Positions 55,879 to 56,209 of a stretch of DNA of 64,000 bases are shown one piece after another. Position numbers and translations under genes: made by a program. The stretch comes from Mucilaginibacter sp. JRF (GTDB taxonomy: Bacteria; Bacteroidota; Bacteroidia; Sphingobacteriales; Sphingobacteriaceae). The notes beneath the pieces were generated by a model. That model worked only from the letters and a program-made list of their open reading frames with translations, did not search any database and was not told the DNA's origin. Every line of letters begins with the position of its first letter. Position 1 is the stretch's first letter. The stretch is taken from positions 1,054,001 through 1,118,000 of the forward strand of contig NZ_JADFBY010000001.1 in NCBI RefSeq assembly GCF_015223065.1, written 5' to 3'.

Positions 55879-55987
55879 TTTATAAAGAAGCGGCGAGAGA
55901 ACAGGCTCAATTACCCGCTGGCAACCCTTCAGCAAATGAAGAAGGTGCCAATTCCTGCCCCGGAAGAATAACCCCGGGAAATATAAA
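55879..55987 (+). promoter_or_regulatory. SAM-I (S-box) riboswitch
   Basis: The core matches SAM-I: AGCGGCGAGAGAACAGGC, CCGCTGGCAACCC, GAAGGTGCCAATTCCTGCCC. P1 can close by TTTATA (55879-55884) with TATAAA (55982-55987). SAM is the likely ligand. It precedes the Cys-rich leader ORF and metY, so SAM binding is expected to reduce methionine synthesis. Boundaries are approximate. Confidence 0.9.
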
Positions 55988-55999
55988 TTAACAAACGAA

Positions 56000-56092
56000 A
56001 TGAAAAGTTTATTTAGCATTCTCAAAAACGTACTACAGTATAATCAATATGGTTTAAACCGTTGTTGCTGTATGTGCATGTGTTGCTGCTAA
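56000..56092 (+). CDS. Cys-rich leader peptide upstream of metY
   Basis: A 30-codon ORF begins 12 nt after the SAM riboswitch and ends in a run of Cys and Met codons: after residues 20-21 (Asn-Arg) it reads CCCMCMCCC, then TAA. Seven Cys codons and two Met codons fall in the last nine. It is followed by a hairpin and, 117 nt on, by metY. I infer a cysteine (perhaps also methionine) sensing attenuator, in series with the riboswitch. Chance is unlikely, but peptide function (for example metal binding) cannot be excluded. Confidence 0.75.
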   Translation: MKSLFSILKNVLQYNQYGLNRCCCMCMCCC

Positions 56093-56101
56093 GCCACACC
56101 C

Positions 56102-56142
56102 TACACGCGTTCCGCTTAACTATGATTGCGTGTATTTCTTTC
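56102..56142 (+). terminator. Candidate attenuator hairpin before metY
   Basis: TACACGC (56102-56108) pairs with GCGTGTA (56128-56134) around a 19-nt loop, followed by TTTCTTTC. It is less canonical than the hairpin before sulfite reductase. A second short hairpin CAGGAT/ATCCTG follows. The 5' arm can also pair with TGTGT in the leader's Cys/Met codons. Confidence 0.5.
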
Positions 56143-56209
56143 AGGATTCGATACATCCTGTGCTAAACAACAAAACATTAACCTTTTTAAAAAATCAAAT
56201 CTTAAAACC

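What the first reader, a model, noticed from the sequence alone, without database searches (positions are those of the whole stretch)
55879..56209. SAM-I riboswitch stacked on a Cys/Met-rich leader peptide before metY
A SAM-I riboswitch closes at 55987, and 12 nt later starts a 30-codon ORF whose last nine codons read CCCMCMCCC. The ORF is followed by a hairpin and metY. The codon content fits the two amino acids made from the enzyme's product. This would integrate SAM (riboswitch) with cysteine supply (leader). Possibly the riboswitch gates translation of the leader rather than of metY directly. I know of no such two-layer design from this phylum.
Basis: partly seen in the sequence, partly recalled or inferred. 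Interest (0 to 1): 0.92.

Follow-up and report, generated by a model that had tools for sequence, protein, structure and literature searches.

The report
SAM riboswitch steering a cysteine leader
In front of a gene for a homocysteine-making enzyme of a Mucilaginibacter-type bacterium, an RNA element of the SAM-I riboswitch class sits just before the start of a tiny reading frame ending in cysteine and methionine codons, an arrangement found in most related metY leaders examined; it likely lets the cell read its SAM level and its cysteine/methionine supply in series before making the enzyme.

Summary
In detail: a complete SAM-I element (55877-55989), a 30-codon ORF 10 nt later ending CCCMCMCCC, hairpins, then metY. 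All 33 same-genus metY loci have a Cys-tailed ORF. Of 199 non-redundant metY SAM-I leaders from several Bacteroidia families, 194 have a short ORF beginning beside aptamer helix P1 (179 with ATG at +4..+11) and 173 have at least 3 Cys in the last 15 codons; 59 SAM-I elements before other genes give 7 and 0. Cys fills 38.7% of the last 12 positions, 2.0% of the body, in the frame of the P1-adjacent ATG in 136 of 138 scorable leaders. Where the Cys run is reduced or absent (genus g16, parts of family f15) the P1-adjacent ORF mostly stays, suggesting that the riboswitch gates leader translation and Cys sensing is a frequent second input. SAM-I-less metY leaders of family f3 carry tandem Cys/Met leaders with intrinsic terminators. 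How the leader controls metY in this genus is unresolved: no conserved terminator, and tail pairing no better than shuffles. No function was tested.

The parts
55820..55827 (+). promoter-like box TACATTTG, matching the Bacteroidota sigma-A consensus TAnnTTTG
   Evidence: read; consensus quoted in a passage of PMC9723704; not tested. The E. coli-type scan found none
55877..55989 (+). SAM-I riboswitch aptamer (RF00162)
   Evidence: 80.3 bits, full length
55981..56002 (+). junction: 3' strand of aptamer helix P1, 10-nt linker and leader start codon; predicted gate of leader translation
   Evidence: ATG at +4..+11 from the aptamer end in 179 of 199 metY SAM-I leaders against 7 of 59 other SAM-I
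56000..56092 (+). leader ORF, MKSLFSILKNVLQYNQYGLNRCCCMCMCCC*
56063..56089 (+). candidate sensor codons, CCCMCMCCC
   Evidence: Cys 725 of 1872 in last-12 positions against 75 of 3777 in the body, 156 unique leaders
56080..56099 (+). small hairpin H0 across the leader stop codon (predicted)
56102..56134 (+). hairpin H1 (UACACGC/GCGUGUA), followed here by UUUCUUU; arms vary compensatorily in the genus
   Evidence: with its U-rich tail this locus is one of 10 of 54 Mucilaginibacter leaders flagged terminator-like by a loose search, but not by the stricter scan
56142..56160 (+). hairpin H2 (AGGAU..AUCCU)
56210..57535 (+). metY, O-acetylhomoserine sulfhydrylase
   Evidence: TIGR01326, 678.8 bits, above cut-off 495.1
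57601..58656 (+). metX-like homoserine acyltransferase, probably same operon
   Evidence: TIGR01392 352.5 bits, under its cut-off of 500
58656..59891 (+). homoserine dehydrogenase, start overlaps the preceding stop
54445..55776 (+). neighbouring Cys/Met-metabolism PLP enzyme (cystathionine gamma-synthase/lyase-like); true start probably near 54655
   Evidence: start inferred

Best explanation
A SAM-I riboswitch lies directly before a short ORF with a Cys/Met-codon tail in front of metY, and it likely decides whether ribosomes load on that ORF, whose Cys/Met codons would then sense amino-acid supply and set metY expression. With SAM bound, helix P1, which ends 10 nt before the leader AUG, would block ribosome loading, so the leader stays untranslated and metY stays low (inferred). 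With SAM low, ribosomes would translate the leader; scarce charged tRNA-Cys (or tRNA-Met) would hold them on the tail, next to hairpin H1 that begins about 10 nt after the stop codon, and raise readthrough into metY-metX-hom; plentiful Cys would let them finish and leave (inferred). The output step is predicted to be transcription attenuation: intrinsic terminators are visible in the SAM-I-less family f3, whereas in this genus no conserved terminator is seen, so a Rho-type or structure-dependent step is my best guess. Where the Cys run is missing the same gated ORF would relay SAM alone. Shown: the parts, their order, spacing, conservation and frame. Inferred: gating, stalling, output and polarity.
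For: (1) SAM-I in 103 of the 109 family metY upstream regions examined (109 of the 166 genomes with a metY match were fetched), with a leader ORF in 102 of the 103. (2) Aptamer-end-to-ATG distance 6-10 nt in 142 of 156 unique leaders. (3) Cys cluster in the frame of that ATG 136:1:1 (18 of 156 had no cluster of three); frames +1 and +2 are open in only 3 and 34 of 156. (4) Cys 38.7% in the tail, 2.0% in the body; TGT 423 and TGC 302 both used. (5) SAM-I before other genes (best-scoring loci plus three of the own genome): 7 of 59 with such an ORF, 0 of 59 with a Cys tail. (6) Natural control G019/L110: no leader, metY's own ATG 10 nt after P1. (7) Within the family, metY loci without SAM-I lack a Cys-tailed ORF too: 6 of 6 unnamed, 5 of 5 named with upstream sequence (the sets overlap). 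(8) In the seven g16 leaders the last 12 residues hold 0-3 Cys and five end in RMR, yet the ORF starts at the same place; in f15 24 of 28 leaders have the ORF and 17 of 28 the Cys tail. (9) In f3 (L300, L302, L303) two tandem Cys/Met leaders precede metY, each followed by a strong hairpin, with a U tract in five of the six and an imperfect one in the sixth. (10) Folding just after the stop: mean z -2.29 (54 Mucilaginibacter), -1.71 (32 Pedobacter), -1.97 (7 g16), weaker in g21 (-1.59), g18 (-1.09) and a mixed Cytophagales-type group (-0.44).
Against: No translation, SAM response or Cys response was measured. No terminator passes the scan in 55700-56300; a looser search flags 10 of 54 Mucilaginibacter leaders (this one included) and 3 of 83 leaders of the other groups. 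Tail-to-downstream complementarity, which a simple two-state attenuator would want, does not exceed shuffles in Mucilaginibacter (mean z 0.1) and is weak elsewhere (Pedobacter -0.51, g16 -0.2, g18 0.05, g21 -0.81, Cytophagales-type -1.16). The leader body shows no amino-acid constraint (61 synonymous of 279 codon differences, null 0.245), and tail constraint is weak by that test (19 of 56). Equilibrium folding of the f3 attenuators with a stalled ribosome lowers a crude terminator index only slightly in five of six (largest drop 0.87 to 0.72) and not at all in one. A stem search just after the stop gives small excess over shuffles, none in the Cytophagales-type group. SAM-I and Cys leader are not strictly coupled outside the family: of ten SAM-I-less class loci, L293, L297, L303 and L309 meet the Cys-tail criterion, and L300 and L302 have Cys/Met leaders on closer reading. 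Two class loci (L289, L291) have the ORF without any Cys tail, and 4 of 28 f15 loci fail the ORF criterion, one of them (L315) only because its ATG lies at -3. Polarity is not secure: in M. tuberculosis the metE uORF lowers its gene while the ppe2 uORF is needed for its gene (PMC11260477, abstract).
Confidence: 0.7

Rival explanations
1. Two independent layers: the SAM-I element acts on transcription or RNA decay by itself, and the Cys leader is a separate ribosome-dependent attenuator that happens to follow it; the riboswitch does not gate leader translation.
For: Cys leaders exist before metY without SAM-I, with terminators, in family f3, and before other genes in the own genome, so the leader works as a free-standing module.
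Against: The start codon lies 6-10 nt after the aptamer end in 142 of 156 unique leaders while leader length varies from 19 to 50 codons; other SAM-I elements show such an ATG in 7 of 59; G019 puts metY itself in that slot; the ORF is kept where the Cys codons are reduced or gone.
Confidence: 0.17
2. The Cys/Met-rich nascent peptide itself is the sensor (of a metal, thiol state or sulfide), arresting the ribosome through its side chains and not through tRNA shortage.
For: Motifs such as CMCCC or CxC could bind soft metals (recalled chemistry); the RMR tails of g16 leaders recall arrest motifs (recalled).
Against: Tails vary among CCCCC, CMCCCIQ, MCCCYCCC, RMR; TGT and TGC are both used; the regulated gene makes the precursor of Met and, by transsulfuration, Cys (established knowledge); f3 leaders have the anatomy of ordinary attenuators.
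Confidence: 0.08
3. The UGU/UGC repeats are kept for RNA pairing and the ORF is a by-product.
For: In nine Cytophagales-type leaders, picked from a group of 14 for a shared motif, the Cys run UUGUUGC faces a conserved GCAACAA, within a 19-pair consensus of which 5 pairs have sequences changed on both sides.
Against: Tail-downstream complementarity does not exceed shuffles in Mucilaginibacter; the Cys cluster is in the frame of the P1-adjacent ATG 136:1:1, and the other two frames are open in only 3 and 34 of 156.
Confidence: 0.04

Closest known systems
M. tuberculosis ppe2 and metE B12 riboswitches with translated uORFs (PMC11260477; abstract and passages read)
   Same: A riboswitch-controlled translated leader ORF; for ppe2 the downstream gene depends on that translation.
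   Different: Ligand B12; the ppe2 uORF overlaps the gene start (AUGA) and acts mainly by termination-reinitiation; it ends in a poly-proline stretch that the passages read do not call a sensor; the metE uORF has the opposite effect. Here the leader ends 68-155 nt before metY (102 family leaders) and carries Cys/Met codons.
Polycysteine leader peptides of actinobacterial cys/cbs operons (PMC1262725, passages; Canestrari 2020 seen only as a title in a reference list; look-up not held)
   Same: Short ORF with a run of Cys codons at the stop before sulfur genes; no obvious terminator in Mycobacterium.
   Different: Other phylum, no riboswitch reported in front in what I saw, cys/cbs genes and not metY.
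Salmonella mgtCBR tandem attenuators (PMC3641672, abstract) and mgtA/mgtL (search listing only)
   Same: One leader RNA with two sensors of different signals, one of them a codon-rich ORF sensing charged tRNA.
   Different: Signals are ATP and proline, acting independently and additively; no small-molecule aptamer placed to gate the ORF.
uORFC-8-2 cysS leaders of Rhodobacterales (PMC8632094, passages)
   Same: Tandem Cys codons in a uORF, ribosome-mediated attenuation proposed.
   Different: Intrinsic terminator, cysS gene, no riboswitch mentioned in the passages read.
Classical S-box/SAM-I riboswitches (recalled), and SAM-V before metY (PMC6061858, listing only)
   Same: Same aptamer class (SAM-I), or the same gene (SAM-V).
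   Different: There the gene's own terminator or start codon is controlled, without an intervening Cys leader (recalled).

Membership tests
SAM-I riboswitch (RF00162) | covariance-model score above gathering cut-off over the full model | tested here: met
   80.3 against 44.4 bits, model 1-108
SAM-I riboswitch (RF00162) | binds SAM | not testable with these tools
   no binding assay
Amino-acid leader-peptide attenuator | short ORF with a run of codons for the pathway's amino acid, conserved in relatives | tested here: met
   173 of 199 non-redundant metY SAM-I leaders with >=3 Cys in the last 15 codons
Amino-acid leader-peptide attenuator | terminator with competing antiterminator after the ORF | tested here: inconclusive
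   none by the scan of 55700-56300; looser search flags this locus and 9 others of 54 in Mucilaginibacter, so not conserved; no tail complementarity above shuffles. Terminators are present in f3 relatives
Amino-acid leader-peptide attenuator | expression rises on starvation for that amino acid | not testable with these tools
   needs reporters
Riboswitch-gated uORF (ppe2 type) | uORF start within reach of the ligand-stabilised helix | tested here: met
   ATG at +4..+11 after the aptamer in 179 of 199
Riboswitch-gated uORF (ppe2 type) | downstream gene expression depends on uORF translation | not testable with these tools
   needs reporters
Riboswitch-gated uORF (ppe2 type) | overlap of uORF stop with gene start (termination-reinitiation) | tested here: not met
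   stop-to-metY distance 68-155 nt in the 102 family leaders

The most novel reading that the evidence does not exclude
A two-input sulfur gate spread across Bacteroidia: the SAM-I riboswitch before metY controls a leader peptide instead of the gene, so SAM sets whether ribosomes enter the leader and Cys/Met-tRNA charging sets what they do there, a serial SAM-then-amino-acid logic in one RNA, with a swappable sensor tail (Cys/Met-rich, five Cys, or nearly none) and in one Cytophagales-type group an extra conserved RNA fold after the leader.
Probability: 0.6. Interest if true: 0.9.

Novelty: new variant of a known kind. Interest (0 to 1): 0.8.

Why it matters
Riboswitches are usually drawn as acting on the gene or its terminator. 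Here an aptamer appears placed to regulate a leader peptide that is itself a second sensor, giving serial control by an end product (SAM) and its precursor amino acids. It recurs in several families of one class and offers natural variants: leader without Cys run, riboswitch without leader, Cys leader without riboswitch. It would give Bacteroidota, where initiation rarely uses Shine-Dalgarno pairing (recalled), a clear case to test aptamer control of ribosome loading. Nine searches of the held open-access library found no report of it; most subscription papers are not in that library.

Tried and rejected
Region-1:2 attenuator idea for Mucilaginibacter (AUGUGUU in the tail against AACACGU in H1): looked good by eye, but complementarity did not exceed shuffled sequence, so it is not claimed. 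Sequestration of the metY start: that region is 0.54-0.69 unpaired in predicted ensembles, no lower than the leader start (0.54-0.64), so it gets no support. Terminator before metY in this genus: none by the scan, not conserved by the looser search. Ribosome-position modelling on the f3 attenuators: equilibrium shift small, index crude. Synonymous/non-synonymous test of the leader body: no constraint. RNAalifold on loose alignments gave no consensus structure for Mucilaginibacter, g18, g21 and the mixed Cytophagales-type group (it did for Pedobacter and g16). Rfam scan of 11 Cytophagales-type loci: SAM only, apart from three sub-threshold hits. Model R2 of their post-leader fold: 1 of 295 class genomes (stricter filters) and 4 of 28 further f15 loci at E < 1e-8. 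Papers that gave little: PMC9723704 (passages; leader-peptide attenuation noted before amino-acid operons of F. psychrophilum), PMC2211319 (passages; S-boxes in Bacteroidetes), PMC9373788 (abstract; SAM-II before metA), PMC13236596 (passages). In the control, locus L196 was anchored wrongly at a contig end; re-anchored it (no ATG within the window), which leaves 7 of 59 unchanged. An interim note of mine said 15 of 17 class loci have the Cys tail; recounted it is 13 with at least three Cys, two with two Cys (L287, L304) and two with none (L289, L291).

Full report
WHAT IS THERE. The window carries, on the + strand, a promoter-like TAnnTTTG box (55820-55827, read), a complete SAM-I aptamer at 55877-55989 (RF00162, 80.3 bits), an ORF at 56000-56092 reading MKSLFSILKNVLQYNQYGLNRCCCMCMCCC*, predicted hairpins at 56080-56099, 56102-56134 and 56142-56160 (fold z -2.34 for 56060-56209), and metY at 56210-57535 (TIGR01326, 678.8 bits), followed by a metX-like gene and homoserine dehydrogenase.

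IS IT MORE THAN CHANCE. metY was sought in 201 genomes of the family; 166 matched and I examined the upstream DNA of 109. All 33 same-genus loci have an ORF with a Cys-rich tail. SAM-I is present in 103 of 109, and 102 of those 103 have an ORF of 19-49 codons whose ATG follows the aptamer by a few nucleotides. The exception, G019 (L110), has metY itself starting 10 nt after P1. The six without SAM-I (genera g7, g12, g13) have no Cys-tailed ORF either. A second, named set of 80 metY loci has SAM-I in 74, and 74 of 74 have the ORF, each with at least two Cys near its end, including Cytophagales (Adhaeribacter, Cyclobacteriaceae, Flammeovirgaceae) and a Saprospiraceae MAG; some are the same genomes as in the first set. 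A class-wide sample (178 genomes, 37 with metY) gave 28 new loci, of which 17 have SAM-I before metY; 13 of the 17 have an ORF near P1 with at least three Cys at its end, two have two Cys (L287, L304) and two none (L289, L291). Family f15 gave 28 loci, all with SAM-I, 24 with the ORF and 17 with the Cys tail. Merged and made non-redundant: 199 leaders (103 family, 54 named, 14 class, 28 f15); 194 with a short ORF starting at -2..+21; 179 with ATG at +4..+11; 173 with at least 3 Cys in the last 15 codons. SAM-I elements before other genes, drawn from the best-scoring hits plus three of the own genome: 7 of 59 with an ATG at +4..+11 opening a 15-70 codon ORF and 0 of 59 with a Cys tail.

THE LEADER. 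Over 156 unique leaders of the family and named sets, Cys makes up 725 of 1872 of the last twelve positions (38.7%) against 75 of 3777 (2.0%) of the body; Met peaks at position 6 from the end (45%). TGT and TGC are both used (423, 302). The densest Cys cluster lies in the frame of the P1-adjacent ATG 136 times, in the other frames once each (18 of 156 had no cluster of three). The body evolves without amino-acid constraint, as expected for a leader whose tail codons matter. Tails differ by lineage: C(M/I)CMCCCC(C) in Mucilaginibacter, CMCCC(I/M)Q in much of Pedobacter, CCCCC in g20, and 0-3 Cys with RMR at the end in five of seven g16 leaders. In g16 and parts of f15 the P1-adjacent ORF is retained with a reduced or absent Cys run. 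I read this as the riboswitch-to-leader link being the deeper constraint, with Cys sensing a frequent second input.

HOW IT LIKELY WORKS. The aptamer ends 10 nt before the leader AUG here and 6-10 nt in 142 of 156, inside the stretch a starting ribosome covers (established knowledge), so a SAM-stabilised P1 should keep ribosomes off the leader. G019 shows the same slot used by metY directly. When SAM is low the leader would be read; the speed at Cys/Met codons then decides how long a ribosome sits just before hairpins that start a few nucleotides to about 15 nt after the stop. Direction is suggested by SAM-I-less relatives: in family f3 the three metY loci found (of 10 genomes) have two tandem Cys/Met leaders, each followed by a strong hairpin, with a U tract in five of six, the anatomy of classical attenuators that open on starvation. 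For this genus the output step is open: no terminator passes the scan, a looser search flags 10 of 54 leaders, this one included, and metY's start is not sequestered in predicted ensembles. The leader-to-metY spacers average 21.5% C against 11.8% G, which would suit Rho but proves nothing.

RESULTS AGAINST. The pairing between tail codons and H1 that I first favoured is no better than shuffles in Mucilaginibacter (mean z 0.1). Equilibrium modelling of the f3 attenuators moves little. Stem searches after the stop give modest excess only, none in the Cytophagales-type group, although the folding z-scores are negative in Mucilaginibacter, Pedobacter and g16 and weaker in g21, g18 and the Cytophagales-type group, and the H1 arms change together in Mucilaginibacter (for instance UACACGC/GCGUGUA and UGCACGC/GCGUGCA). 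Outside the family, Cys leaders also occur before metY without SAM-I. In M. tuberculosis one riboswitch-linked uORF lowers its gene and another is needed for its gene (PMC11260477, abstract), so the polarity here needs a test. Nothing here measures translation or a SAM or Cys response.

A RELATED STRUCTURE. Nine Cytophagales-type leaders, picked from a group of 14 for a shared motif, carry right after the ORF a conserved fold in which the Cys run can pair with a downstream GCAACAA, followed by a stem with an invariant GUGAC; 5 of 19 consensus pairs have sequences changed on both sides. Rfam shows no match to it, and the hits of its model all lie in leaders of metY loci (searched metY loci only).

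KNOWN OR NEW. Riboswitch control of a translated uORF is known for B12 switches of M. tuberculosis (PMC11260477, abstract and passages), two-signal leaders for mgtCBR (PMC3641672, abstract), and Cys leaders for Actinobacteria (PMC1262725, passages) and Rhodobacterales cysS (PMC8632094, passages). A SAM-I aptamer placed to gate a Cys/Met leader before metY, kept across several Bacteroidia families, was not found in nine searches of the held library. I file it as a new variant of a known kind.

Noticed in passing
L035 / L002 (own genome C1:577301-577840): A second SAM-I element is followed by two successive Cys-tailed ORFs (..TCNNACCC*, ATG about 78 nt after the aptamer, and MKGLLYTANFQQLNIVFNVNCCCICCC*), the second 269 nt before a SusC/SusD-type pair (pair named by eye).
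   Followed up: partly
L115, L116 (own genome C1:23029 and C1:28220): Short ORFs ending CCC* and CCCC* about 60 nt before a thioredoxin-like protein gene and an S10-peptidase-like gene (names by eye, recalled): poly-Cys leaders may be common in this genome. Pattern TGYTGYTGYTRA occurs 58 times against 4 for its reversed control, though many of the 30 hits looked at are not leaders.
   Followed up: partly
L300, L302, L303 (family f3): metY preceded by two tandem Cys/Met leaders, each with its own terminator-like hairpin, and no SAM-I found by Rfam.
   Followed up: partly
L263, L270-L273, L276, L277, L280, L281: Conserved structured RNA with an invariant GUGAC after the leader; no Rfam match.
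   Followed up: partly
L270/L286, L273/L312, L294, L296, L334: SAM-I plus Cys leader lies about 600-790 nt before metY, leaving room for another gene at the head of the operon.
   Followed up: no
genus g16 (e.g. L104, L107, L109, L111): Leader tail reads RMR* and the stop codon abuts a UCGUC..GACGA-type hairpin; Arg and Met in place of Cys is unexplained. The genus is unnamed here (Sphingobacterium is my guess).
   Followed up: no
window 23818-24022, - strand: Cobalamin riboswitch (RF00174, 110.3 bits).
   Followed up: no
L001 (own genome C1:962362): SAM-I before a cysteine-desulfurase-like gene (by eye) with a 12-codon ORF, MMLCFTLDSWIS*, whose ATG overlaps the aptamer's 3' end.
   Followed up: no
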